Shown: positions 8,393 to 60,440 of the stretch, piece after piece | Position numbering within the stretch: position 1 is the stretch's first letter | Layout: every line of letters begins with the position of its first letter | From: Desulfosporosinus sp. Tol-M | GTDB taxonomy: Bacteria; Bacillota; Desulfitobacteriia; Desulfitobacteriales; Desulfitobacteriaceae | Assembly: GCA_000770645.1 (NCBI GenBank) | Contig: JQID01000039.1 | Span: 1 to 64,000, forward strand | DNA length: 64,000 nt | Direction of reading: 5' to 3' | Notes under the pieces: model-generated | Database searches by the model: none | Told to the model about the DNA's origin: nothing | The model's input: the letters and a program-made list of their open reading frames with translations, nothing else | Program-made: the position numbers and the translations under genes

Positions 8393-8425
8393 TTTACAAA
8401 TAACACAAATGGTGTATAATTACAC
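8393..8425 (+). promoter_or_regulatory. SigA-type promoter with overlapping palindrome upstream of the XRE gene
   Basis: TTTACA (8393-8398) and TATAAT (8415-8420) are separated by 16 bp. The palindrome GTGTA-TAAT-TACAC (8412-8425) covers the -10 box, an ideal place for repression, probably by the XRE protein encoded directly downstream. This is likely the promoter of the whole 8448-18554 operon. Confidence 0.6.
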
Positions 8426-8447
8426 TAGGAGGGGGGTGTTGCTTCTT

Positions 8448-8906
8448 ATGACAAGGGTTGATTTTATAAAAATAGCCTCTGAAAAATTAAAACTCATCCG
8501 CATTGAAAGTGACTATACACAGGATAAAATGGCTGAAATACTGGGTATATCCAAGAAGACTCTGGTTCAGATTGAAAAAGGCCGGTCTACCCTTGGCTGG
8601 GCAGGTGCCGTATCTTTGTGTACAGTTTTTAGGAATAGTGAGGTCCTGGAGCTGACCTTTGGAGGAGATCCTCAAGATATTATACTTTCTTTAGCCTTTA
8701 CCGATTATGAAAGTAACGAAAAAACTCTGGGGGGAAAAGTATGGTGGATAAATATTAAGTCAACTGATGAATTTAGAATCCAGCAGAATATAATTTCCGA
8801 ACACTATCGGATTCTAGATGATCAGGATAGAAGAATTTGTTCTTCCTTTGATTATGAATATATCAAAAAGAGACTGCAGGAGCTTTCAGAAGATTGTGGG
8901 GTTTAA
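8448..8906 (+). CDS. XRE-family helix-turn-helix transcriptional regulator
   Basis: A 152-residue protein with a Cro/C1-type HTH at residues 10-65 (SDYTQDKMAEILGISKKTLV, QIEKGRSTLGW). The C-terminal 80 residues are of unknown fold and may sense a ligand. The ATG at 8448 fits the ribosome site AGGAGGGGGG; a longer in-frame reading from 8322 would run through the terminator and promoter and is rejected. It ends 4 nt before the GTG of the prenyltransferase gene, so it is probably first in the biosynthetic operon and its local regulator, with an operator candidate over its -10 box. Confidence 0.8.
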   Translation: MTRVDFIKIASEKLKLIRIESDYTQDKMAEILGISKKTLVQIEKGRSTLGWAGAVSLCTVFRNSEVLELTFGGDPQDIILSLAFTDYESNEKTLGGKVWWINIKSTDEFRIQQNIISEHYRILDDQDRRICSSFDYEYIKKRLQELSEDCGV

Positions 8907-8910
8907 TGAA

Positions 8911-9891
8911 GTGCTGAAATTTATTAAGGCTTATCTCAAATCAATGAGGCTTTATTACGCTTTTGTAACAGGGATTGCAGGTTGGATGGGGATGGCATTT
9001 TACGAATACATTGCCAAATCTCCCTTTCAGACAGTTGAACTGGTTCCAACAACAGAAAAAAAAGCGTTAGTACTGATCATGCTTTTTCTCAGTTGGGGTA
9101 TTAACCAGATTATTAATGACTACCTGGGCTTGCAAGAGGACAGGATCAACGCTCCGCACCGGCCCATGGTTACCGGTGAACTGGATCCCGGAAAAGCCCT
9201 CGCTTTAACGGGAGTCCTGCTGACCATGACGTTACTGATTACATACACATATCTGGAACCAATTGCCCTTATTCCCATAATCCTGGGAATCGTTTTTAAC
9301 ATTTTATATGAATACGCCAAGGGTTACGGTATTCTTGGAAATATTGTCTTTGGGCTGATGATTTCCATGTGTACTGCCTTCGGGTTTCTGGCAGCGGGTC
9401 CAACAGTGCCCCCCTATTTTACGTCCAGCCGGGTTTCGGTACTGATCCTGGTAGCCGTAATGAACGGTCTGATGACTTTTTATACATATTTTAAAGACTA
9501 TGAAGGGGATAAGGCCGCAAATAAACGAACGATCATAGTCTTGCTGGGGATTGAAAAATCCCGCTATCTTGCGGCGCTCACCGCTTTTTTCCCTGCGGGG
9601 ATCTTTGCGCTGCTTTATTTAAATCATTTTATTGAAGCCAGGGTTAACACTATGTTCCTCATCCTCGCCGGATTAACAGTTTTTCTAGAATTGTGGACGG
9701 GATATCTTTACTTTAAAAACCCCCGGGGCGAGAGAACTTATTATTCTCTGGTGGCTAATTTTCGGGCCTGTATCTGCGGCCAGGCAACCCTCATCGCTTT
9801 ATTCAATACCGAACTGGCAATGATTCTTTTTTTAGTATCCTATATGTTTGTCGGATTCTTATTTGACCTGCACACCGATCCACAAGCATAA
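8911..9891 (+). CDS. UbiA-family prenyltransferase
   Basis: A 326-residue integral membrane protein with about 8-9 hydrophobic helices. Both Asp-rich motifs of the family are recognisable: NDYLGLQEDRINAPHRP near residue 70, a variant NDxxDxxxD, and KDYEGDKAANKRT near 197. UbiA enzymes transfer a polyprenyl group from its diphosphate to an aromatic or lipid acceptor. The first motif has Gly where the third Asp/Asn is usual, but the second set is intact. GTG 8911 gives the family-like start MLKFIKAYLKSMRLYYAFVTG; the ribosome site is weak, suggesting coupling to the XRE gene. The acceptor is unknown; context suggests a lipid or amino-ketone made by the downstream genes. Confidence 0.8.
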   Translation: MLKFIKAYLKSMRLYYAFVTGIAGWMGMAFYEYIAKSPFQTVELVPTTEKKALVLIMLFLSWGINQIINDYLGLQEDRINAPHRPMVTGELDPGKALALTGVLLTMTLLITYTYLEPIALIPIILGIVFNILYEYAKGYGILGNIVFGLMISMCTAFGFLAAGPTVPPYFTSSRVSVLILVAVMNGLMTFYTYFKDYEGDKAANKRTIIVLLGIEKSRYLAALTAFFPAGIFALLYLNHFIEARVNTMFLILAGLTVFLELWTGYLYFKNPRGERTYYSLVANFRACICGQATLIALFNTELAMILFLVSYMFVGFLFDLHTDPQA

Positions 9892-9962
9892 AGGAAGAGT
9901 TGCTTCAGTTGGAGTTCAGTTGAACTTATCCAAGGGCTGAGCGCATATTTGAAACTTGAAAT

Positions 9963-10193
9963 TACTCCGAACTTCGGACTCCGAACTTCGGACCTCGCAC
10001 TTCGGACTTCGCACTCCGAACTTCGGACCCCGCACTTCGGACTTCGCACTTCGCACTTCGGACTTAGGACTTCGCACTTAGGACTTCGCATTTCGGATTT
10101 CGTACTTCGGACTTCGCACTTCGGACTTCGCACCTCGGGCTTCGGACTTCGGACTTCGGACTTCGAACCTCGAACCTCGCATTTCGTACCTCG
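9963..10193 (+). repeat. Heptanucleotide tandem repeat, 33 units of NACTTCG
   Basis: Thirty-three head-to-tail 7-bp units with consensus (G/C/A/T)ACTTCG fill 231 bp between the prenyltransferase gene and the OYE gene, with sporadic variants such as ACCTCG, ATTTCG, ACTTAG. Being free of stops in some frames, it gives spurious ORFs on both strands (heptapeptide LRTSDFG-like on plus). No ribosome site or protein family supports translation. It ends 15 nt before the next start codon, so it forms the leader of that gene. Confidence 0.95.
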
Positions 10194-10208
10194 AATTGGA
10201 GGGTTGTT

Positions 10209-11417
10209 ATGAAATTATTTGAACCAGCATTGATAGGTTCCTGCCGGTTGAAAAACAGGATTATCCGCTCGGCAACCTTCGAGGGAATGGCTGATCAGCA
10301 GGGTCATCCGCTACAAGAATATCGACTTTTGTATAAAGAATTAGCATCAGGAAGCGTGGGAGGGATAATTACAGGCTTTGTGTATATCTCTCCGGATGGA
10401 AGAGCGATGCATCCGGGTCAGGTCGGCATAGATCGTCAGGAAATGGTTGAATATCTTTTGCCAGTAACTGATGAGGTCCACAAATACGACTGTAAGATTT
10501 TTATGCAGTTGGCCCACACCGGAAGACAGACTAGGAAAAAGGAAACAGGACAGGATATCTGGGGGGTGTCCAAGAAAAAATCCTTATATTTTGGGGGTTC
10601 TCCACGGGTGCTGTCGACAGAACAGGTGTATTTACTAATCAAGCGGTTTGCAGAAGCAGCGAGCTATGCTCAAGCAGCCGGATTTGACGGTGTGCAGGTT
10701 CATGCTGCACATGGCTACCTTATCCACCAGTTTCTGCTGCCGACTATCAACAGGAGAAACGATGAGTTTGGCATTGATGCTAAGAGCAGGATAGGCACGA
10801 GATTCTTAGGTCTGGTTATCGATCAGATCAGGAAGAAGTGTGGACAGGATTTTGCCCTACTGGTCAAGGCAAGCGGGAGTGATGACTATTTTACCAGATT
10901 TACCACCGAGCAATTTGTCAGCCTTATACAATTCCTTGATGTCCAAAAAGTTGATGGCATAGAAATCAGTTATGGGACGATGGATAATGCCCTGAATATC
11001 TTTCGTGGAGAGATACCCCATAAAGTGGTTATAAAGCATAACCCTGTATTCAAAGCCAACAACGGGATTACTAAAATGCTTTATAATGCCCTGATCTACT
11101 GCTTAATGAGGAGAAAACTAAAACCTTTTACACCTGCTTATAATCTTAAGTATGCGGAACTAGCTAAATCATTAACCGGCATTCCGATCATTAGTGTCGG
11201 TGGTTTCCGGAAGGGAGAAGAAATGAGGAGGTGTTTAGAAAATGGCGTAATTGATTTTATCAGTATGTGCAGACCCTTTATTTGTGAACCGGACCTGGCA
11301 GAAAAGCTTGAGCATGACAGGAACTATTCTGCCAAATGTATAAATTGCAATATTTGTGCCATTATGTGTGATTCCGACCAACCCACACGGTGTTATAGAA
11401 ATGATTTTGATTTGTAG
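10209..11417 (+). CDS. NADH:flavin oxidoreductase (OYE/FadH-like) of the biosynthetic operon
   Basis: A 402-residue FMN TIM-barrel enzyme of the same family as the gene at 3472. It has LKNRIIRSATFEGMADQQG at the start, the active-site HAAHGYLIHQFLLPTINRR near residues 168-186, and VGGFRKGEEMRR in the phosphate region. The C-terminus has a Cys cluster CINCNICAIMC followed by Cys seven residues later, consistent with 4Fe-4S binding as in dienoyl-CoA reductase; the pyridine-nucleotide half is absent. GGAGG lies 6 nt from the ATG. It probably reduces a C=C bond in an acyl or prenyl chain of the pathway product. About 25 extra residues (KHNPVFKANNGITKMLYNAL) precede the last strands. Confidence 0.82.
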   Translation: MKLFEPALIGSCRLKNRIIRSATFEGMADQQGHPLQEYRLLYKELASGSVGGIITGFVYISPDGRAMHPGQVGIDRQEMVEYLLPVTDEVHKYDCKIFMQLAHTGRQTRKKETGQDIWGVSKKKSLYFGGSPRVLSTEQVYLLIKRFAEAASYAQAAGFDGVQVHAAHGYLIHQFLLPTINRRNDEFGIDAKSRIGTRFLGLVIDQIRKKCGQDFALLVKASGSDDYFTRFTTEQFVSLIQFLDVQKVDGIEISYGTMDNALNIFRGEIPHKVVIKHNPVFKANNGITKMLYNALIYCLMRRKLKPFTPAYNLKYAELAKSLTGIPIISVGGFRKGEEMRRCLENGVIDFISMCRPFICEPDLAEKLEHDRNYSAKCINCNICAIMCDSDQPTRCYRNDFDL

Positions 11418-11435
11418 AAGAAAGGCGTGAACAAA

Positions 11436-11687
11436 ATGGAAAATCGCGTAATTTTAACCTTGAAGCATGTTATCAGCAACAAAACATCTAAGAAAATAAC
11501 CCTGGAGAGCCGTTTGCGTGAAGACTTAAATGTGGATTCAATAGACTTCCTGATGATTATTGGGGACCTGGAGGATGAATTTTCTATCACGATTGATGAA
11601 GATGAATTTCTCGATGTAGTTACCGTCAATGATATTGTTGAAAAACTAAAAGCCAGGGGTTTAACCAAGAGAATAGTATGGTTCTGA
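11436..11687 (+). CDS. Acyl carrier protein
   Basis: An 83-residue ACP with the phosphopantetheine site DLNVDSIDFLMI; Ser35 is the attachment residue. Acidic helices II and III (GDLEDEFSITIDEDEF, VTVNDIVEKL) are typical. ATG 11436 is chosen over the GTG at 11427 by spacing from AAAGGCG. The gene overlaps the oxoamine synthase gene by 10 bp, a link seen also in bacterial sphingolipid clusters, where a dedicated ACP supplies the acyl group. It is probably a pathway-specific carrier and not the fatty-acid-synthesis ACP, whose motif is usually GADSLD. Confidence 0.9.
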   Translation: MENRVILTLKHVISNKTSKKITLESRLREDLNVDSIDFLMIIGDLEDEFSITIDEDEFLDVVTVNDIVEKLKARGLTKRIVWF

Positions 11688-12853
11688 GAGATTTCTATAG
11701 CCGGTTTAGCTTGGATGAGAGCCTTGCCGAGGTTGTGGGCCATAACCCCTATTACCAAATAATCGATTCCGGATTGGATGGTAAAATACTGGTGAACGGA
11801 CATGAGATAATTGACCTGGCCTCCAACAACTATCTGGGCTTAGCTGCAGACGGCAGGGTGAAAGGGGCTGCTGTGGGGGCTGTCCACAAGTATGGGGTAT
11901 CTCTCTGCGGCACGCCCATCGCCACAGGATACATCGATTTGTACCAAAGACTGGCGGAAAAGTTATCCGGTTTTGTCGGGCTGGAGGAGACCATCATCCT
12001 CCCTTCGTGTTACCAGGCTAATAATGGCTTATTTAGTTCCATTGCCGGTCCCCAAGACCTGATTGTAGTTGACCGGTTTGCCCATTCTTCCTTGATCCAG
12101 GGAATTAAATCCGCCGCATGTAAAATCCGGCCCTTTCTGCATAATAATCTGGAGCATCTGGAAGGGATTCTACAGCGTTCCACGGGATACCGGCAGGTCT
12201 TTGTCGTGACCGAGTCTGTGTTTTCGACGGAGGGCAGTATTGCCCCTTTTAAGGAAATCGTGCAATTGTGTGAGAACTATCAGGCTATGCCGGTGATCGA
12301 TGATTCTCACGGTATTGGAGTGCTGGGGAAATCGGGCCAGGGAATCCTTGAGGAGCAGGGAATCCAAGGATACCGGGGGATTTATACGGCGTCCTTAGGA
12401 AAGGCAATGGCCAACTCCGGCGGGATGATCAGCGGAGAAAAAGGGCTGATAGACTATCTTAAATATTACTGCTCGCACCTGGTTTATTCTACAGCCTTAA
12501 CCCCTGCAGTTCTGGCGGGTATCGGGGCAGTTCTGGATATTATTCAATCTGAATTCGAGGTGATTAAGGGTAGGCTGGTAACCTATCAACAGGAAATATA
12601 TAAAAGCCTTGTTGAGGGGGGATTTACTGTGGTACCAGGTGCGGCTCCTATTAATTCCATTCAATCCGGAAGTAAAGAAGCTACGTTTATCCTTGCCAAA
12701 AAGCTTTATGAAAAGGGGATTCTTTCCACTCCTTTTATTGAACCCTCTGTTCCAATAGGTGAAGGACGGGTTAGGCTGATTGCCGGAGCCAATCTCACCC
12801 AGGATACGGTTGCAGAAGCTGTGGAAATAATTAAAAGGATTGGACGCCCATGA
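11678..12853 (+). CDS. Alpha-oxoamine synthase family PLP enzyme (serine palmitoyltransferase/AONS/KBL-like)
   Basis: A 391-residue fold-type I PLP enzyme. Family marks: LASNNYLGLAADGRVK, GTPIATGYIDLYQRLAEKLS, the PLP-ring Asp/His segment VIDDSHGIGVLG, and the Schiff-base Lys242 in TASLGKAMANSGG. The family condenses an amino acid with an acyl thioester and releases CO2, giving an alpha-amino ketone. BioF, KBL and SPT cannot be told apart by eye, but the adjacent ACP, ketosynthase, SDR and lipid kinase, and the lack of other bio genes, favour a lipid-like product (SPT type). ATG 11678 overlaps the ACP end; translation is probably coupled. Confidence 0.85.
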   Translation: MVLRDFYSRFSLDESLAEVVGHNPYYQIIDSGLDGKILVNGHEIIDLASNNYLGLAADGRVKGAAVGAVHKYGVSLCGTPIATGYIDLYQRLAEKLSGFVGLEETIILPSCYQANNGLFSSIAGPQDLIVVDRFAHSSLIQGIKSAACKIRPFLHNNLEHLEGILQRSTGYRQVFVVTESVFSTEGSIAPFKEIVQLCENYQAMPVIDDSHGIGVLGKSGQGILEEQGIQGYRGIYTASLGKAMANSGGMISGEKGLIDYLKYYCSHLVYSTALTPAVLAGIGAVLDIIQSEFEVIKGRLVTYQQEIYKSLVEGGFTVVPGAAPINSIQSGSKEATFILAKKLYEKGILSTPFIEPSVPIGEGRVRLIAGANLTQDTVAEAVEIIKRIGRP

Positions 12854-13827
12854 GATATTTCTTAATAATGAATCCCGGTTCCGGAGGGGGAAGCAGGGAC
12901 AAGGTTAAGAAAATCCTGGCCATTTTTCATAAAAATAGGCTTGAGTTTGACTATAAGTTGACAGACACCATGGAAGATGCCTATACCCTATCCGTCGAGG
13001 GAAATATTAAGGGCTATGATACAATAGTCGCTGTGGGGGGAGACGGAACGATTAACAGGGTCATCAACGGATTTTATGACCCCTTGGGCAGTAGGATTTC
13101 CAGTTCCAAGTTGGGTGTAATTCATACCGGTACCAGCCCTGATTTATGCAAGAGCTATAATGTACCTCTGGACATCGAGCAGGCTCTGAAGACGGTTCTT
13201 GCTGGAAAGAGTGGGAAAATTCCCCTAGGAAAAATAACCTATACCAGTGTTTATGACAAGGGGTTGGATGGTCTGCCACTAAGTATGGAAAACGAACATA
13301 TACAAACCAGCTATTTTGCCTGTTGTGCCAATATCGGTCTGGGGGCCTCCGTGGCCAGAAATGCGAACAGCGGGATCAGAAACTATATCGGGGATTTCGC
13401 GGGGACGTTTGTCTCCCTGATTATAACTCTGCTAAAGTATCAACCCGGTAACTACTCCGTTAGTTTTGACGGACAGAAACAGGTTCTCGGAAATGTTTAC
13501 AATATCGCCGTGGGAAAGACAACTTACATAGCCTCGGGAATTAAGGTAAAAAACCAGTTAACTCCCGGAGACAGCCGTTTTTATACCCTGATAATCAAGG
13601 ATCTGGGGTTTGCTGATTGGGCCGGTGTCCTGAGAAAAATATACAGCGGGAAGCGGTTTTCTAATAATAAGACGATGTCCCTGCAATATGCTTCATCGAT
13701 AGAAGTGTACGGCAATAGGAGAAATCCGGAATTGGAGTTTGATGGTGATCCCAGAGGATTTCTTCCTTGTGTGATTGAAACCGCCCGGGACCACTTAGAC
13801 CTGATCTGTGAGGTTCAGGATGAGTAA
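12850..13827 (+). CDS. Diacylglycerol kinase catalytic-domain lipid kinase
   Basis: A 325-residue ATP-dependent lipid kinase of the DagK/YegS/sphingosine kinase superfamily. It starts with the nucleotide-site segment IMNPGSGGGSRDK and has the invariant GGDGTINRVING near residues 62-72, HTGTSPDLCKSY (variant of GTxND), and ends in FDGDPRGFLPC. It should phosphorylate a lipid hydroxyl at the membrane surface. Start overlaps the previous stop by 4 bp (ATGA). In this context a sphingoid- or prenol-type acceptor made by the operon is more likely than bulk diacylglycerol; this is inference. Confidence 0.85.
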   Translation: MRYFLIMNPGSGGGSRDKVKKILAIFHKNRLEFDYKLTDTMEDAYTLSVEGNIKGYDTIVAVGGDGTINRVINGFYDPLGSRISSSKLGVIHTGTSPDLCKSYNVPLDIEQALKTVLAGKSGKIPLGKITYTSVYDKGLDGLPLSMENEHIQTSYFACCANIGLGASVARNANSGIRNYIGDFAGTFVSLIITLLKYQPGNYSVSFDGQKQVLGNVYNIAVGKTTYIASGIKVKNQLTPGDSRFYTLIIKDLGFADWAGVLRKIYSGKRFSNNKTMSLQYASSIEVYGNRRNPELEFDGDPRGFLPCVIETARDHLDLICEVQDE

Positions 13828-14887
13828 AGAACATGAAATGATTGAGGTTATCCATAAGCATCTGCCCAGAAGTGCCGGTCAGCTGAATAAGCTTTTTGAA
13901 GCCGACTCGGAAATAGTCGATTTTCATGGCAAAAGTCTGCTCTACAATCTGGACGAGTTTTCGGAAGAAGACCTCTTGCGGGATGAGGACCCCTATGTTC
14001 TAGGCTGGAATATGGCAGTAGGCAGTATCAGCGACATCCTGGCCTCGGGGGGAAAACCTAAGTATTATGCTCACAGTCTGGTTATGCAAGATTCCTGGAC
14101 GAAGGACTATGTTGAAAAATTGTCTCTTGGAATTGCAGAGGTCCTAAAAGAAGCGGGGGCAGCTTTTATTGGCGGGGATTTTGGAACTTCCAAAAGCTGG
14201 CGTTATACAGGTTCGGTCATCGGGGATCTGGAGGGACCGCCCATGTTAAGGAGTGGGGCAAAGATTGGCGACGGTATTTTTATTACCGGCCCAATCGGCA
14301 GCGGCAATGTTCAAGCCGCCTTAGTTCTCTACGCCGAAAACCCATTAGTCAAATATTTAACGGGGAGTTGGAAAAATTATTTCCAGCTGAGAAGCAAAGA
14401 GGCAGAGGTAATAAAACAACACAGCTGCTGCTGCATCGATACCAGTGATGGAGTATTTAATGCTCTCAGCGCTATTTCTGAGATGAGCAGGATAGGTTTT
14501 GTCGTGGGCAGCCTGCCCTATGTGAAAAGTGGGTTATTACTGGCCAAAGCCCTTAACGTACCCAAAGAAATGCTGTTCTTAGGGGAATGCGGGGAGTATG
14601 AATTGCTTTTTACCCTAAGTAAAGAGGCTGAAGAAGAGTTTATAAATGAAGTCCGGGAGAAGAAGCTGAAGTTTTATAAAATTGGTGAAGTAATAGAACA
14701 GGGAAGTAAAGTGCTTAGGAACGGGGGCAGGGAAATTAACTTGGTAACCTACGATCTATGCGCCAGGGATTTCCCAGAGCCCAAAGCATATTTGCGAGCT
14801 GTGGTAAATTTTTTTAAGGGAGGGCAATGTGAAACGAAGAGTTGTTATTACCGGGCTAGGACCGGCCACAGCCATAGGGATTGGTAA
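13820..14887 (+). CDS. ThiL/PurM-like ATP-dependent protein (AIR synthase-related)
   Basis: A 355-residue member of the PurM/ThiL/HypE/SelD superfamily. It has the Asp-rich segment DEDPYVLGWNMAVGSISDIL near residue 60, the Gly-rich FIGGDFGTS, GAKIGDGIFITGPIGSG and a second Asp site IDTSDGVFNALS, in the order of thiamine-monophosphate kinase. No other thi gene is near, so it may act on a different phosphate ester or acyl-phosphate. ATG 13820 overlaps the kinase stop by 8 bp. Oddity: the frame runs 59 bp into the next gene, giving a tail (CETKSCYYRARTGH) that reads over the ketosynthase start and is unlike the family. Confidence 0.72.
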   Translation: MSKEHEMIEVIHKHLPRSAGQLNKLFEADSEIVDFHGKSLLYNLDEFSEEDLLRDEDPYVLGWNMAVGSISDILASGGKPKYYAHSLVMQDSWTKDYVEKLSLGIAEVLKEAGAAFIGGDFGTSKSWRYTGSVIGDLEGPPMLRSGAKIGDGIFITGPIGSGNVQAALVLYAENPLVKYLTGSWKNYFQLRSKEAEVIKQHSCCCIDTSDGVFNALSAISEMSRIGFVVGSLPYVKSGLLLAKALNVPKEMLFLGECGEYELLFTLSKEAEEEFINEVREKKLKFYKIGEVIEQGSKVLRNGGREINLVTYDLCARDFPEPKAYLRAVVNFFKGGQCETKSCYYRARTGHSHRDW

Positions 14888-16223
14888 AAAGGATTTCTCC
14901 GCAGGCCTTTATGGTTTAAAACCGTGCATAGCAGAGATACCGAGCAGTTATGAACATAATTATAAGTTCAAATCCCGCTATTTCGTACCCAAGCCGGAAT
15001 TTACCTTGACCGACATAGGAATCCATAAATCAGTTGAAGGGATGATGGAAGAATCCTCGCGACTCTCGGTATTATGCACGAAGCTGGCTTTGGAGGATGC
15101 GGGGTTTCAGATTAGTAATACTGAAAAATACCTGCAGGTTGAGGGCCTGGAAAACTGCGGCATTATAATCGGTACTGGCATGAGCAGCCTGCAGACAGCG
15201 CTGGAATCCTACGCCGCTCATATTGCCGGGACGGACAAATCGGCGGCTGAGTCTGACTGTAGATCCGGATCTAATCTTAATTCTAATTCCAATCCTAATT
15301 CTAATTCTAATTCCAATCCTAATCCTAATCCTAATCCTAATCTCAATCCTAATCTCAATCCCAATCCTAACCCTAATAAACCTCATTTCAACAGAATGGT
15401 AATTCCTAAGCTGATGACCAATGCGCCGGCAGCTTGGATATCGATACTTTTCGGCCTTAAAGGGTTCAGTTATACTCTCAATACTGCTTGTGCCTCGGGA
15501 AGCTATGCCATTGGAGAGGCCTACGAAACTATTCTATCCGGCAGATGTGATGTGATCCTGGCGGGTGGAGTTGAAGTCCTGGCAGAAAAGCATGGGGCGA
15601 TTATGAGAGGGTTTGACATGCTGTCTGCCCTTACCAGGGCAAAGGACGGAAGACCCCTGCCTTTTTCCCGGCAGAGAAGCGGGTTTTTATTCAATGAAGG
15701 CGCCGGTTGTGTTTTGGTCCTGGAAGAGCTGGCAAGGGCTCGGAAAAGGGGGGCCGGCATTTATGCGGAGATTGTTGGGTATGAAGCTTGCAGCGATGCT
15801 TACAGCATTGTCCAGATGGATCCTTCCGGGGACAGTATCACCAGTCTGTTTCAGAAGATCACTGGTGGGATCAAAGTGGACTATCTCAATGCCCATGGTA
15901 CGGCGACAATTGCCAATGATGACATTGAGGCCAAAGTAATCCAATGGATCTTTGGGGCTGCCGGTGCTCAACCGTATATCAATTCCACCAAAGGTATTCT
16001 TGGGCACAGCATTGGCGCCAGCGGTGCGATTGAGGTTGCTGTAGTAGCCCTTTCAATAAAAAAATCCAGAATCCATGGGAACATCACGACCGATCCATTG
16101 GAGAATCTGAATCTGCCCCTGGAGACCCTGACGGCTCCAATTGACTATGCTTTATCCGCTTCCTACGGCTTTGGGGGGCATAATGCCTTGATCCTGCTGA
16201 AGAGGTATGAGGACCATGAATAA
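14829..16223 (+). CDS. Beta-ketoacyl-ACP synthase (FabF/KAS II-like) with internal Asn-rich repeat
   Basis: A 464-residue thiolase-fold condensing enzyme. Catalytic Cys221 (NTACASGSYAIG), His356 (NAHGTAT) and His393 (GILGHSIGASG) are all in place, so decarboxylative Claisen condensation is expected. Start GTG 14829 (KRRVVITGLGPATAIG) has GGGAGGG upstream. Normal FabF is about 412 residues; about 35 extra residues are a low-complexity run of NP, NS and NL dipeptides (residues 149-183) inserted in the loop before the catalytic Cys. It may extend the acyl chain loaded on the operon ACP or make a dedicated ketide. It overlaps genes on both sides. Confidence 0.88.
   Translation: MKRRVVITGLGPATAIGIGKKDFSAGLYGLKPCIAEIPSSYEHNYKFKSRYFVPKPEFTLTDIGIHKSVEGMMEESSRLSVLCTKLALEDAGFQISNTEKYLQVEGLENCGIIIGTGMSSLQTALESYAAHIAGTDKSAAESDCRSGSNLNSNSNPNSNSNSNPNPNPNPNLNPNLNPNPNPNKPHFNRMVIPKLMTNAPAAWISILFGLKGFSYTLNTACASGSYAIGEAYETILSGRCDVILAGGVEVLAEKHGAIMRGFDMLSALTRAKDGRPLPFSRQRSGFLFNEGAGCVLVLEELARARKRGAGIYAEIVGYEACSDAYSIVQMDPSGDSITSLFQKITGGIKVDYLNAHGTATIANDDIEAKVIQWIFGAAGAQPYINSTKGILGHSIGASGAIEVAVVALSIKKSRIHGNITTDPLENLNLPLETLTAPIDYALSASYGFGGHNALILLKRYEDHE
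15273..15374 (+). repeat. In-frame hexanucleotide repeat inside the ketosynthase gene, 17 units
   Basis: Seventeen 6-bp units of the form AAT + (CCT/TCT/CTC variants) code for Asn-Pro, Asn-Ser and Asn-Leu dipeptides. Unit length keeps the frame whatever the copy number. A comparable Asn-rich hexanucleotide run is found at the start of cbiG at the right edge of the window. Confidence 0.95.
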
Positions 16224-17247
16224 GGTCATGATTACGGGAGCGACAGGATTTATTGGCAGCCATATTACCAGGGCTTTCTGTGCAAACCAGGTCAGGGTTG
16301 GTTGTCTAGTCAGAAAATCCAGCAGCCTTGCCAACCTTGAGGACCTGCCGGTAGAGTATAGAACCGGTGATATCAGGAACACCGGGGACTTGACCGGGGC
16401 TTTCACCGGCTATGACTGGGTTATTCATAATGCCGCCAAAGTATCCGACTGGGGGGATTATGAAGAGTTTTATCAGACGAATGTAACAGGCACAGGCAAT
16501 GTACTGACTGCCTGTGTTCAAACGGGGATTAAAAACATCCTTCTAACAGGGTCCAATTCCGTTTACGGAGAAGAGAACAATTCTACCGTAAAGAACGAAA
16601 ATTCACCCTATAATGCTCATTACCGGTACTTCGGAGACGGTCTTTTCCCCTGCAAGTTGAATTACTATCGTGATACCAAAGCCCTGGCCAAAAAAGAGGC
16701 CCTAACCATTGCCGCAACGCATGATTTGAACCTGACTATTTTGGAGCCTGTTTGGGTTTATGGTGAGGGGGAATTGAACGGAGGATTTTATGAATACCTC
16801 AAGACTGTCAAGGCGGGAATTCCCTATGTGCCGGGAGCTAAGCATAACAAATTTCATGTTATCTATGCCGGAGACCTTGCCAGGGCTTACGTCCTGGCTT
16901 ATACAAAACAGCTGGCAGGTCTTAACTGTATACTAATCGGTAATGAACAGGTTGAAAGCATGGACAAAATTTATGGATTGTTATGTTCTGAAGCAGGATT
17001 AAGAAAGCCGGGGAATCTCCCCAAGGTTCTGATCTATCCCATCGCCTTGCTCATGGAACTCTTTTACACTCTGGTTAATTCTTACAGACCTCCGATTCTG
17101 ACCCGGGGAAGGGTAAACATGTTCTATGACAATCTGGAATTTTCAGTGGAGAAGGCCAGGCAAATTCTCGGGTTCGGAAACTCCATCAGTCTGGAGGAAG
17201 GTATCAAACGAACTGTCTTATGGTATCAAGAACAAGGTCTTATTTGA
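16216..17247 (+). CDS. NAD(P)-dependent extended SDR (epimerase/3-beta-HSD-like)
   Basis: A 343-residue Rossmann protein with GATGFIGSHI at residues 7-16, VIHNAAKVSDWGDYE, the Ser of TGSNSVYG and the catalytic Tyr151-x3-Lys155 (YRDTK). It resembles the 3-beta-hydroxysteroid dehydrogenase/dihydroflavonol reductase branch, which includes CerR, the reductase of the 3-oxo group in bacterial sphingolipid synthesis, and OleD. Reduction of the beta-keto amine or keto-acyl product of the operon is a reasonable role, not proven. ATG 16216 is chosen because GAGG lies 4 nt upstream; it overlaps the ketosynthase stop by 8 bp. Confidence 0.82.
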   Translation: MNKVMITGATGFIGSHITRAFCANQVRVGCLVRKSSSLANLEDLPVEYRTGDIRNTGDLTGAFTGYDWVIHNAAKVSDWGDYEEFYQTNVTGTGNVLTACVQTGIKNILLTGSNSVYGEENNSTVKNENSPYNAHYRYFGDGLFPCKLNYYRDTKALAKKEALTIAATHDLNLTILEPVWVYGEGELNGGFYEYLKTVKAGIPYVPGAKHNKFHVIYAGDLARAYVLAYTKQLAGLNCILIGNEQVESMDKIYGLLCSEAGLRKPGNLPKVLIYPIALLMELFYTLVNSYRPPILTRGRVNMFYDNLEFSVEKARQILGFGNSISLEEGIKRTVLWYQEQGLI

Positions 17248-17261
17248 AAGAGGGTTGCCAG

Positions 17262-18554
17262 TTGATTAAGGTAAGTAATATTACCGGCAGGAAGAAAACT
17301 GTCTTTAACCTGAAACTGAAAATAAGCATCTTTTTTCACTATATCCCGCTGCTTTGGAAAGGTGATATTTCTTTCAAAAGGTTTATTCTTTTATTCAAAA
17401 GGCTGTTACTTTTTCTGTCCAGGATGCGGCACAATAAATTTGTCAAAATCAACGGCCAAACCAGATTAGGACTTTATATACCGGGTTTTCCATCCCAGGC
17501 CTTTTACACGGCCTGTCAGAAATTTAGTCAATTCTCAGAAAAAATGCCCTGTACTACGGTCCTGTTATCGATTACATCCGCCTGCCCTTATCATTGCAAT
17601 TACTGTTATCAGAAACTTGATAAGGGCAAGGATGTCGATATAGAGACTTTGATCAGAATCGTCAGAAAGCTGCAGGAGATGGGGATTGCTTTTATTAATA
17701 TTGAGGGCGGAGAGCCCTTTTTAACCTATGATCGCTTGAAGAGGCTTTGTGCAGTCATTGATGCCAGGTCGGAAATCTGGATAAATTCCACAGGGGCTGG
17801 GATGACTACGGAAAGGCTTGCGGAACTTAAAGAAATGAATGTGATAGCCATTATGTTTTCCCTGCACAGCCCTGATGCCGATGCTTTCAACCAATTTATG
17901 GGGAATACTTCCGCCTGGAATGCTATGGAGGCCGGGGTTAAGATGTGTCATGCAGCAGGCTTGGCCGTGGCTTTTAATACCTGTATGATGCGAGACGACT
18001 TTTATGACGGCACTTTTGAAAGGATTATGGAGACGGCAAGGGACTTCAAGGCCTGTCTGATCCAGATGATTAAGCCCAAACCGGCGGGAGGTTGGCTGGC
18101 TAAAGGAGATATTGAGTTCACCCCGGAGGACCTGGCTTATATTATGACTAAGGTAAACCAATACAATTTGCAGGAAGAGTTCTCGGAGTATCCAGCAATC
18201 TCAGCCCAGATCATGGAAGAAGATAAAGCTGTTTTCGGCTGTACGGCCGGAGGCACAGACCGATTTTATATCAATGCCAAGGGGGATTTGCAACCCTGTG
18301 AGTTTCTGAACATATCCTTTGGGAATATCGCGGCGGATAGATTCGAGGATATTTATCAAAAAATGCGCAGTTGCTTCGCCTGGGGCGGAGACTGTTATCT
18401 GTGCGAAAGCTGCTCGAAAGAGATTCATCAGCTTTATATGGAAAATAGTCTGAAGTCCCTGCCGCTACCCCCCGAACTGTCGGAAAAAGTCTCCGGTTCC
18501 TGGAACCGGGGGAAAAGAACGGATTTATACGAGCGATTGGAGAAAATGAAGTAA
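17262..18554 (+). CDS. Radical SAM enzyme with SPASM-like C-terminus
   Basis: A 430-residue protein with the radical SAM cluster motif CPYHCNYC (Cys107, Cys111, Cys114), the SAM-binding segment NIEGGEPFLTYDR, and a C-terminal Cys set (FGCTAGGTDRFYIN, PCEFLNISFGNI, then GGDCYLCESC) matching an auxiliary 4Fe-4S SPASM/Twitch region. About 105 residues precede the core and include an amphipathic hydrophobic stretch (IFFHYIPLLWKG), perhaps for membrane contact. TTG 17262 has GAGGG 8 nt upstream; an ATG at 17220 would overlap the SDR end by 28 bp. It may carry out a C-C bond or methyl-type rearrangement on the lipid product. Last gene of the operon. Confidence 0.8.
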   Translation: MIKVSNITGRKKTVFNLKLKISIFFHYIPLLWKGDISFKRFILLFKRLLLFLSRMRHNKFVKINGQTRLGLYIPGFPSQAFYTACQKFSQFSEKMPCTTVLLSITSACPYHCNYCYQKLDKGKDVDIETLIRIVRKLQEMGIAFINIEGGEPFLTYDRLKRLCAVIDARSEIWINSTGAGMTTERLAELKEMNVIAIMFSLHSPDADAFNQFMGNTSAWNAMEAGVKMCHAAGLAVAFNTCMMRDDFYDGTFERIMETARDFKACLIQMIKPKPAGGWLAKGDIEFTPEDLAYIMTKVNQYNLQEEFSEYPAISAQIMEEDKAVFGCTAGGTDRFYINAKGDLQPCEFLNISFGNIAADRFEDIYQKMRSCFAWGGDCYLCESCSKEIHQLYMENSLKSLPLPPELSEKVSGSWNRGKRTDLYERLEKMK

Positions 18555-18728: not shown

Positions 18729-18793
18729 ATCGGAATGATACAAGTAATATTGACAATAATATTGTTGTTATTATTCCGATCGTGCGGTATACT
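18729..18793 (+). promoter_or_regulatory. Promoter and candidate operator of the Fic gene
   Basis: TTGTTA (18765-18770), 17 bp, TATACT (18788-18793) form a good SigA-type promoter. ATCGGAAT (18729-18736) is repeated inverted as ATTCCGAT (18773-18780) inside the promoter spacer, with the dyad ACAAT-AAT-ATTGT between. This looks like an autoregulatory site for the HTH-bearing Fic protein. Confidence 0.5.
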
Positions 18794-18817
18794 AAAAAAG
18801 ACTCGGGAGGTGAAGAG

Positions 18818-19735
18818 ATGGAATACATTACGGTAAAACAGGCGTCGGAGCGGTGGGGCATATCTGACCGCCGTGTTCGCGTACTTTGTGAAGAGGGGCG
18901 GATACAAGGTGTCGTAAGAAAAAGACGTTCTTATCTTATTCCGACGGATGCACTGAAGCCAATTGATGGACGCAGTCTGCGCGGCAAGGAGATTCCGGAA
19001 CAATACGCTGCACTTTTTGCGACTCTCGATGAGATGAAGTCGGAGCTTGACCGCCGTCGCCCTTTGACAAGCGGGGAATTAAAGCGTTTGCAGGATGAAT
19101 TTCTCGTGGAATTTACCTACAACTCAAATGCTATCGAGGGTAACACGCTCACACTTCAGGAAACTGCACTTGCCTTGGAGGGCGTGACGATTGACCAAAA
19201 ACCCCTCAAAGATCATCTGGAGGCGGTGGGGCATCGCGATGCGTTTCTTTATGTTGTTTCTCTTGTCAGTGAAAAGGTTCCTGTTTCGGAACGGATTATT
19301 CGTGAAATCCATGCTTTAGTTCTGATTGACAGACCGGTAGACAAGGGAGTGTATAGGAAAATCCCGGTGAAGATTATGGGTGCACATCATGAACCCCCGC
19401 AACCTTATCTTGTTCCTGTTCAGATGGAACGGTTGATCGCGGAGTTGTCCAGTGACAACCGGCATATCATTGAAACGGCGGCGTTGTTCCATCTGAATTT
19501 CGAGGGAATCCATCCGTTCATCGATGGAAACGGGCGTACCGGCCGGTTGATATTGAACCTCATGCTCATGCAGGCGGGCTACCCGCCCATTGATGTGAAA
19601 TTTTCCGACAAGAGAAAATATTACACCTGTTTTGACAGCTATTATCGGGACAATGATGTGTCGCCGATGGTGAATATGGTCGGAGAGTATGTAAAAGAAA
19701 GACTTTTACAGTATTTGAGTCTGTTGCAAGAATAA
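18818..19735 (+). CDS. Fic/DOC-family protein with N-terminal helix-turn-helix
   Basis: A 305-residue Fic protein. The catalytic motif HPFIDGNGRTGR (family HPFxxGNGRxxR) lies near residue 228 and the inhibitory-helix motif SNAIEG ((S/T)xxxE(G/N)) near 100, N-terminal to the core, as in class II Fic proteins. Residues 1-55 form a MerR/excisionase-like winged helix (ITVKQASERWGISDRRVRVL). Fic enzymes usually transfer AMP to a target hydroxyl. ATG 18818 follows GGAGGTGAAG. The gene has its own promoter, terminator and flanking direct repeats, suggesting a recently acquired cassette. No antitoxin-like small gene lies beside it. Confidence 0.9.
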   Translation: MEYITVKQASERWGISDRRVRVLCEEGRIQGVVRKRRSYLIPTDALKPIDGRSLRGKEIPEQYAALFATLDEMKSELDRRRPLTSGELKRLQDEFLVEFTYNSNAIEGNTLTLQETALALEGVTIDQKPLKDHLEAVGHRDAFLYVVSLVSEKVPVSERIIREIHALVLIDRPVDKGVYRKIPVKIMGAHHEPPQPYLVPVQMERLIAELSSDNRHIIETAALFHLNFEGIHPFIDGNGRTGRLILNLMLMQAGYPPIDVKFSDKRKYYTCFDSYYRDNDVSPMVNMVGEYVKERLLQYLSLLQE

Positions 19736-20912: not shown

Positions 20913-21590
20913 ATGAGTACAAGTTCAAGCATTAACCGTTCGATTTTGGCAAGGGCTATTAAAGAATCCTTTGTAAAATTAAATCCTCGGGCTTTGTGGA
21001 CTAATCCGGTCATGTTAGTGGTAGAGCTCTTAGCGGTATTGACTTCTTACTTTACTATTAGAGATATGGGCGGACCGATGAAAACCTTTTTGTTTGACGG
21101 GCAGATTACGGCGTGGTTATGGATTACCGTCCTTTTTGCCAACTTTGCCGAAGCCCTGGCTGAGGGAAGAGGAAAGGCCCAGGCTGAATCCCTTCGAAAA
21201 ACCAAGCGTGAAACGATCGCTAAAAAGGTGACCGGAGAAAAAACAGAACACATTTCGGCCGCCAAACTGGTTAAGGGGGATATCGTACTGGTTGAAACAG
21301 GGGAGTATATCCCCGGTGATGGAGAAGTCATGGAGGGCATTGCATCTGTTGATGAAAGTGCGGTTACCGGTGAATCTGCTCCGGTGATCCGCGAATCAGG
21401 CGGCGACCGCAGTGCCGTAACCGGAGGCACTAAGGTGCTTTCGGATTGGATCAAGGTGAAGATCACTGTTAATCCGGGGGAAACTTTCCTGGATCGTATG
21501 ATTAGCTTAGTCGAAGGAGCTAAGCGCCAGAAAACGCCGAATGAAATAGCCTTAACCATTCTGTTTAATCAAGCACATCTCCAAAAGTAA
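20913..21590 (+). pseudogene. kdpB: Truncated KdpB, N-terminal third of the potassium P-type ATPase
   Basis: 225 codons against about 680-690 in the family. The first TM region ([16 protein letters not shown]), the second helix ([21 protein letters not shown]) and the actuator domain with [20 protein letters not shown] are perfect. After [11 protein letters not shown] the family sequence stops abruptly and eight foreign residues (FNQAHLQK) lead to a TAA. The phosphorylation site DKTGT, nucleotide domain and last helices are missing, so no pump can form. GGAGGA precedes the ATG. Homology is certain; whether the fragment is still translated is not. Confidence 0.9.
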
Positions 21591-60015: not shown

Positions 60016-60249
60016 TAGTTCAACCTCCCCGTTAGACTAACAACCTGTATATATATAATAAGTTGTCATATAGCAAATGTCAACCCTTAGATATGTAAAC
60101 TTTATCCATCAATATTTTTCTAAGGTAATAACCCACGAGAAATTCATGCTGGTTCACTTAAGTTTTTCCTAACTTCTTTCTATCAGAAAGAACTTGGTAT
60201 ATAATAATAAACGAATGTTCGTCGAATACACCACTCGTGAATTTAATAG

Positions 60250-60440
60250 CGTTATGCTTAAGGTTCCTCTGCGCTAGAGGATTAAAAAGGGGAAGTCGGC
60301 GAAAGTCCGACGCGGTCCCGCCACTGTAAACAAGGAGTTCTCATTTATCCCGCGAGTTATTACCATGATGGGTAGAGAATGATGATATGAAGCCAGAAAA
60401 CCTGCCTTGAGAAATATCACAGACCTACGGGCGATAGGTG
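60250..60440 (+). ncRNA. Cobalamin (AdoCbl) riboswitch
   Basis: A classic B12 element: AAGGTTCCT near 60259, GGGAAGTCGGCGAAAGTCCGAC-type stem, CGCGGTCCCGCCACTG (the B12 box, 60311-60326), and GAAGCCAGAAAACCTGCCT at 60389-60407. It controls cbiET-cbiL-cbiF-cbiG by premature termination at the hairpin at 60464-60490. Confidence 0.95.

What the first reader, a model, noticed from the sequence alone, without database searches (positions are those of the whole stretch)
8448..18554. Undescribed operon joining an alpha-oxoamine synthase, ACP, lipid kinase, ketosynthase, SDR, UbiA and radical SAM enzymes
Ten genes in one direction with overlaps of 4-59 bp form a single unit, behind one promoter with an operator-like palindrome. 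The ACP + serine-palmitoyltransferase-like + CerR-like SDR + lipid-kinase set is what bacterial sphingoid-base synthesis uses, yet sphingolipids are not known as a normal feature of this type of Firmicute. A FabF-like enzyme, an OYE with Fe-S Cys, a ThiL/PurM-like protein, a UbiA prenyltransferase and a SPASM radical SAM enzyme point to a new amino-lipid or prenylated amino-ketone. Seen: families and layout. Known: family chemistry. Inferred: product.
Basis: partly seen in the sequence, partly recalled or inferred. Interest (0 to 1): 0.88.

Follow-up and report, generated by a model that had tools for sequence, protein, structure and literature searches.

The report
Undescribed widespread anaerobe lipid-like biosynthesis operon
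A block of nine enzyme genes plus its own regulator, which by its parts should build an unknown amino acid-derived lipid-like molecule, sits in this sulfate-reducing bacterium and recurs as a unit in at least 14 phyla; no description of it was found in the open literature searched.

Summary
The operon is real. Ten same-strand genes (8448-18554): XRE regulator, UbiA, Fe-S old-yellow-enzyme (OYE), ACP, alpha-oxoamine synthase (AOS), DAGK-type lipid kinase, ThiL-like kinase, FabF-like ketosynthase (KS), extended SDR, radical SAM/SPASM. All ten keep their order in every fully read relative of the genus (apparently Desulfosporosinus); AOS, UbiA and rSAM occur in the same half of 30 genus genomes. 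One scan of 84,980 species genomes found 52 loci in at least 14 phyla; 23 of 29 untruncated loci hold all nine enzymes, while flanking genes differ. The AOS forms its own clade (100/100), outside SPT, BioF, KBL and ALAS, so this is neither biotin synthesis nor ordinary sphingolipid synthesis. Catalytic motifs are intact. A palindrome before the XRE gene is conserved in all 19 aligned loci. Best reading: a self-contained pathway condensing an ACP-bound acyl chain with an amino acid to an aminoketone, then reducing, phosphorylating and prenylating (or pseudo-prenylating) it, with one radical-SAM step. Product and step order are inferred. No description turned up in open-access full text. New variant of AOS-initiated lipid or natural-product pathways; possibly a new lipid class.

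The parts
8393..8420 (+). sigma-70-like promoter TTTACA-16-TATAAT
   Evidence: 11 of 12 matches; the TTTACA box is kept upstream in many relatives
8411..8426 (+). operator palindrome GGTGTATAATTACACT overlapping the -10 box
   Evidence: AGTGTAAnnTTACACT footprint in all 19 aligned loci; the single exact copy in five of six genomes searched lies at this locus; window copy has 2 mismatches
8448..8906 (+). XRE/HTH_19 regulator, probably autoregulator
   Evidence: Pfam HTH_19/HTH_3; found only in part of the Bacillota loci
8896..9891 (+). UbiA-family intramembrane transferase (ORF opens at 8818; likely start GTG 8896)
   Evidence: PF01040 1.1e-26; AF2 model pLDDT 89, best fold match archaeal DGGGP synthase 6m31; motif NDYLGxxED instead of NDxxDxxxD
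9964..10195 (.). degenerate 7-bp tandem array between UbiA and OYE
   Evidence: TRF, about 28 copies of ACTTCGG
10209..11417 (+). old-yellow-enzyme oxidoreductase, single domain, with conserved Cys377/380/383/395 (likely 4Fe-4S)
   Evidence: PF00724 1.3e-54; conserved Cys; YqjM/FadH relatives in PDB
11427..11687 (+). acyl carrier protein
   Evidence: PF00550; Asp37-Ser38 attachment motif conserved; directly upstream of AOS
11678..12853 (+). alpha-oxoamine synthase (PLP), new clade
   Evidence: PF00155; own clade 100/100; Lys242, Asp208/His211, Arg366 kept, substrate loop differs
12850..13827 (+). DAGK/YegS/sphingosine-kinase-type lipid kinase, GGDGT motif
   Evidence: PF00781 7e-22, YegS_C; nearest solved DgkB
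13808..14887 (+). ThiL-like (PurM-superfamily) kinase with the ThiL Asp set
   Evidence: TIGR01379 1.6e-38, below cut-off; nearest solved structures are ThiL; conserved D49, D76, D124, D211, D214, GExGEYEL
14829..16223 (+). FabF-like ketosynthase, Cys221-His356-Lys388-His393 intact; holds an in-frame 6-bp array at 15271-15377
   Evidence: TIGR03150 3.8e-80; conservation; array
16207..17247 (+). extended SDR (3beta-HSD/HpnA/OleD type), Tyr154-Lys158
   Evidence: PF01370/PF01073; HpnA 141 bits, OleD-type 122-133 bits
17220..18554 (+). radical SAM/SPASM enzyme with conserved N-terminal extension
   Evidence: PF04055 and PF13186; Cys122/126/129; AF2 pLDDT 90, best fold match SkfB 6efn

Best explanation
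An autoregulated, mobile biosynthetic cassette for an unknown amino acid-derived lipid or lipid-like metabolite. Proposed route, inferred from family chemistry: a dedicated ACP carries an acyl chain; the ketosynthase may lengthen it by one malonyl unit; the AOS releases it by decarboxylative condensation with an amino acid (identity unknown, not assumed to be serine) to an alpha-aminoketone, which may cyclise to a hydroxypyrrole if the chain is a beta-ketoacyl one; the SDR and the Fe-S OYE reduce it; the lipid kinase phosphorylates a hydroxyl, and the ThiL-like kinase may add a second phosphate (monophosphate to diphosphate is what ThiL does); the UbiA enzyme then joins the product to, or uses it as, a (poly)prenyl-diphosphate-like partner in the membrane; the radical SAM/SPASM enzyme makes one further radical modification. 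The XRE protein represses the operon through the palindrome over the -10 box. Shown: gene content, motifs, conservation, co-occurrence, operator footprint, AOS clade. Inferred: substrates, order of steps, product, repression.
For: All enzymes keep catalytic motifs. ACP sits directly 5' of AOS nearly everywhere. Nine-enzyme core complete in 23 of 29 untruncated loci across at least 14 phyla; recurring flanking families are almost absent, flanks sampled are housekeeping or unrelated, and the junctions leave no room for a conserved precursor-peptide gene. In 61 relatives UbiA and rSAM occur in the same 16 genomes, AOS orthologues in 15 of these. Divergences of the genes correlate, e.g. SDR-rSAM 0.92 outside the genus. 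AOS own clade. UbiA nearest in sequence and fold to the archaeal lipid synthase DGGGPS. Operator footprint.
Against: No product is known and no step is tested. UbiA lacks the second Asp of motif 1 (Gly104, with Glu at 107), so its donor may not be an ordinary prenyl diphosphate. The ThiL-like gene is absent in one untruncated locus (L071), OYE in two and KS in four, so these steps are not obligatory or can be covered by the host. UbiA-AOS divergence correlates only weakly (0.38). The literature search covers open-access papers only.
Confidence: 0.6

Rival explanations
1. Canonical sphingoid-base or sphingolipid pathway acquired by a Firmicute: AOS is a serine palmitoyltransferase, the SDR is CerR, the lipid kinase is a sphingosine kinase.
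For: ACP + SPT-like AOS + SDR + lipid kinase present; SPT structures are the top phmmer hits at 208.6 bits, KBL close behind at 205.1.
Against: AOS outside the clade with SPT 3a2b; SPT loop SRF replaced by TPI/TPV; no bCerS-like acyltransferase in the core; a host (G470) also has a true SPT-clade enzyme; UbiA, OYE, ThiL-like and rSAM have no place in that pathway.
Confidence: 0.1
2. Prodiginine-like logic: KS + ACP + AOS make a beta-ketoacyl-ACP and condense it with an amino acid to a (hydroxymethyl-)hydroxypyrrole carrying an alkyl chain; the kinases activate its hydroxymethyl group as a diphosphate and UbiA uses this as donor or prenylates the ring.
For: KS-ACP-AOS is the PigJ/PigH module set (own knowledge); the KS also matches the PigJ model weakly (70.9 bits); a lipid kinase + ThiL-like pair fits mono- to diphosphate.
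Against: KS is absent in four of 29 untruncated loci; AOS was not compared with PigH; no direct chemistry.
Confidence: 0.2
3. A diffusible signal: AOS makes an aminoketone autoinducer of the CqsA/CAI-1 kind, sensed by the XRE protein.
For: CqsA-type AOS are homologous; XRE plus operator at the operon head.
Against: XRE is only in part of the Bacillota loci; the further enzymes with kinases, UbiA and rSAM far exceed CAI-1 needs; no sensor kinase in the cluster.
Confidence: 0.06
4. A redox-active prenylated membrane cofactor (quinone-like) for anaerobic electron transfer.
For: UbiA plus flavo-FeS oxidoreductase; hosts appear to be mostly anaerobes by their names.
Against: Half the genus lives without it; hosts seem to include fermenters; two kinases unexplained; the genome has a separate, higher-scoring UbiA homologue.
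Confidence: 0.1

Closest known systems
Bacterial sphingolipid synthesis (Spt, CerR, bCerS with ACP; Caulobacter)
   Same: ACP-linked AOS, an SDR reductase, lipid kinase type known from sphingoid metabolism
   Different: AOS clade distinct, no bCerS, added UbiA, OYE, ThiL-like, KS and rSAM enzymes
Sulfonolipid/capnine synthesis (cysteate acyl transferase)
   Same: AOS condensing an acyl thioester with an amino acid
   Different: no cysteate synthesis genes; that AOS scores lower (28eh_A 125.9 bits versus SPT 208.6); extra enzymes
Prodiginine MBC branch (PigJ ketosynthase, PigH ACP-ACP-AOS)
   Same: KS + ACP + AOS module logic
   Different: separate proteins, no PCP/adenylation, no methyltransferase; kinases, UbiA, rSAM and OYE added; not compared by phylogeny
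Archaeal DGGGP synthase (UbiA family)
   Same: nearest solved sequence and fold of the UbiA protein
   Different: motif 1 second Asp replaced by Gly with Glu three residues on; substrate unknown
ThiL thiamine-monophosphate kinase
   Same: fold family and Asp/EYEL motifs
   Different: below the TIGR01379 cut-off in every genome tested; cluster context

Membership tests
Serine palmitoyltransferase (SPT) | AOS falls in the clade of known SPT | tested here: not met
   core clade separate 100/100, SPT 3a2b with L117 elsewhere; one SPT reference only plus paralogues
Bacterial sphingolipid pathway | bCerS-type acyltransferase present in the cluster | tested here: not met
   no acyltransferase of that kind in the ten genes; the rest of the genome was not searched for it
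Bacterial sphingolipid pathway | SDR is CerR | not tested
   best models HpnA and OleD; no CerR sequence compared
BioF (biotin synthesis) | clusters with BioF and with biotin genes | tested here: not met
   TIGR00858 292 bits below cut-off 426; tree; no biotin genes near
KBL / glycine C-acetyltransferase | clusters with KBL | tested here: not met
Alpha-oxoamine synthase superfamily | PLP Lys, Asp/His cofactor residues, C-terminal Arg | tested here: met
UbiA superfamily | UbiA fold and two Asp-rich motifs | tested here: inconclusive
   fold met; motif 2 KDYxGD met; motif 1 lacks one Asp
ThiL | passes the curated thiL cut-off | tested here: not met
   124-136 bits versus 184
Prodiginine MBC-type pathway | AOS in the PigH clade | not tested
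   no PigH sequence at hand
SPASM radical SAM | CxxxCxxC and SPASM domain | tested here: met

The most novel reading that the evidence does not exclude
A categorically new class of bacterial lipid or lipid-like cofactor made by a nine-enzyme pathway in which an AOS-derived amino-alcohol is activated by two successive kinases to a diphosphate and joined by a variant UbiA in the membrane, spread by horizontal transfer through anaerobes of at least 14 phyla.
Probability: 0.4. Interest if true: 0.88.

Novelty: new variant of a known kind. Interest (0 to 1): 0.74.

Why it matters
A pathway of nine enzymes that stays together in at least 14 phyla must make something useful, yet no product or description was found. 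There is a ready set of cultured carriers (e.g. Desulfosporosinus hippei DSM 8344, D. lacus DSM 15449, Alkaliphilus peptidifermentans DSM 18978, Acetivibrio alkalicellulosi DSM 17461) and close relatives without it for lipidomics, and a route to a new amino-lipid, membrane cofactor or natural product. It also warns that 'Spt homologue' surveys of sphingolipid producers need to keep this AOS clade apart.

Tried and rejected
Biotin or threonine-degradation operon: rejected by tree and context. Single-genome oddity or MAG artefact: rejected, since isolates, some in one contig, carry it. RiPP operon around the SPASM enzyme: no small conserved ORF fits in the tight junctions. Substrate hints from flanking genes: only three weak recurring flank groups, sampled flanks are housekeeping. 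A regulon for the operator: in five of six genomes the only exact copy is at this locus; one-mismatch copies elsewhere were not followed. Literature: AOS + UbiA + radical SAM, Desulfosporosinus + sphingolipid, + aminolipid, and similar term sets gave nothing on this cluster. The first AOS tree had paralogues read on the wrong strand and was replaced.
Full report
WHAT IS THERE. The ten ORFs lie at the stated place, on one strand, and each family call holds: HTH_19 regulator, UbiA (PF01040), Oxidored_FMN (PF00724), ACP (PF00550), Aminotran_1_2/AOS (PF00155), DAGK_cat + YegS_C, ThiL-like AIRS, ketoacyl-synthase, extended SDR, radical SAM + SPASM. Junctions are overlaps of 4-59 bp or a 9-bp gap except UbiA-OYE (317 bp, mostly a 7-bp tandem array). 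A near-consensus promoter (8393-8420) and a palindrome (8411-8426) precede the regulator.

WHOSE IT IS. The genome is a 206-contig draft (3.04 Mb, listed 98.85% complete and 8.27% contaminated). Named Desulfosporosinus records match its same-genus set, contig lengths included, so the host is taken to be Desulfosporosinus; this is inference from neighbours. In 30 genus genomes the AOS orthologue (at least 71% identical) is in 15, and UbiA and rSAM are in the same 15 plus one fragmented draft; none of the 31 further genomes of the family and order has UbiA or rSAM at the thresholds used, or an AOS above 36% identity. A wider class and phylum sample adds no further AOS at E <= 1e-75. Thirteen fully read relatives hold all ten genes in the same order and a fourteenth is cut by a contig end.

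HOW WIDE. One scan of 84,980 species genomes with two peptide patterns of the AOS gave 52 loci, a lower bound. They lie in 14 named phyla plus Ozemobacter-type bacteria without a phylum label: Bacillota, Bacteroidota, Pseudomonadota, Fibrobacterota, Omnitrophota, Calditrichota, Sumerlaeota, Latescibacterota, Auribacterota, Fidelibacterota, Synergistota, Cloacimonadota, Bdellovibrionota, Spirochaetota. Many are MAGs, but isolates are among them. With profiles of the nine enzymes, 23 of 29 untruncated loci hold all nine; KS is missing in four, OYE in two, ThiL-like in one; UbiA, ACP, AOS, SDR and rSAM never. Gene order is the same in most, rotated in Bacteroidales, split in Ozemobacter. The reduced Synergistaceae locus shows a lipid-kinase start joined to the tail of the ThiL-like gene, a decay remnant. 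Pairwise divergences of the nine proteins correlate across loci (0.38-0.92 outside the genus), and the AOS tree mixes phyla, which points to spread as a unit by horizontal transfer; a formal test was not run.

WHAT THE ENZYMES CAN DO. AOS: own clade, 100/100, all bootstrap trees, apart from KBL, BioF, ALAS and SPT references. Lys242, Asp208, His211 and Arg366 are kept, but the loop that reads GSRF in SPT and SVRF in KBL reads GTPI or a close variant here, so the amino acid substrate cannot be read off. ACP lies within a few bases upstream of AOS in most loci, in keeping with an ACP-borne acyl donor. KS has Cys-His-Lys-His; SDR has Tyr-Lys; OYE has His165/His168 and four conserved Cys in CxxCxxC-x11-C; the lipid kinase has GGDGT; the ThiL-like protein has the ThiL Asp set and a GExGEYEL motif. 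UbiA is closest in sequence and fold to archaeal DGGGP synthase but has NDYLGxxED in place of NDxxDxxxD. The rSAM enzyme has its three cluster Cys and a SPASM domain, and an N-terminal helical extension; the fold search gives SkfB, SuiB, BlsE, i.e. peptide and small-molecule SPASM enzymes.

MECHANISM. ThiL phosphorylates a monophosphate to a diphosphate and UbiA enzymes use diphosphates (established knowledge), so a lipid kinase, a ThiL-like kinase and a UbiA enzyme in one operon suggest R-OH to R-P to R-PP to transfer. This idea is mine, untested, and the locus without a ThiL-like gene (L071) speaks against it being obligatory. The safer statement is an AOS-initiated pathway to an amino acid-derived lipid-like product (confidence 0.6).

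REGULATION. AGTGTAAnnTTACACT, with few mismatches, lies just before the XRE start in all 19 aligned loci, from this genus to Petroclostridium and Anaerovorax; in the six genomes searched it has exact copies only here. Repression by the XRE protein is inferred.

COMPARISON AND NOVELTY. Bacterial sphingolipid synthesis is the nearest described pathway by logic; a survey of anaerobes (PMC11334938) treats AOS outside its Spt clade as of divergent activity, in line with this result, and J Biol Chem 2024 (PMC11087976) defines the pathway by Spt, bCerS and CerR, of which bCerS is absent here. No paper found describes the nine-gene set; subscription papers and preprints were not searchable. I therefore file it as a new variant of AOS-initiated pathways and leave a new lipid class as the novel case.

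Noticed in passing
window 9964-10195; L050 and L051 UbiA-OYE gaps: Degenerate 7-bp tandem array (ACTTCGG, about 28 copies). At the same place two other Desulfosporosinus have heptamer arrays of different unit (CGAATAT, ACTACGA), while others have none.
   Followed up: partly
window 15271-15377: In-frame 6-bp array (CTAATC) inside the ketosynthase gene gives a run of Asn-Pro/Leu/Ser residues, lacking in most relatives.
   Followed up: no
window 60244-60423 +: Cobalamin riboswitch, 78 bits.
   Followed up: no
window 18782-19735 +: Fic/DOC protein with an N-terminal HTH_17 domain just after the operon.
   Followed up: no
window 20913-21590 +: Short ORF matching the E1-E2 ATPase domain (225 aa), looks like the truncated start of a KdpB-type P-type ATPase.
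   Followed up: no
L084:11104-11541; L092: Cluster remnants in insect-gut bacteria: lipid-kinase start joined to a ThiL-like tail in a Synergistaceae MAG, and only ACP-AOS-DAGK found in a Zoogloeaceae MAG contig.
   Followed up: partly
L071:12667-14046 +: A MatE transporter gene lies inside the Ozemobacter version of the cluster.
   Followed up: no
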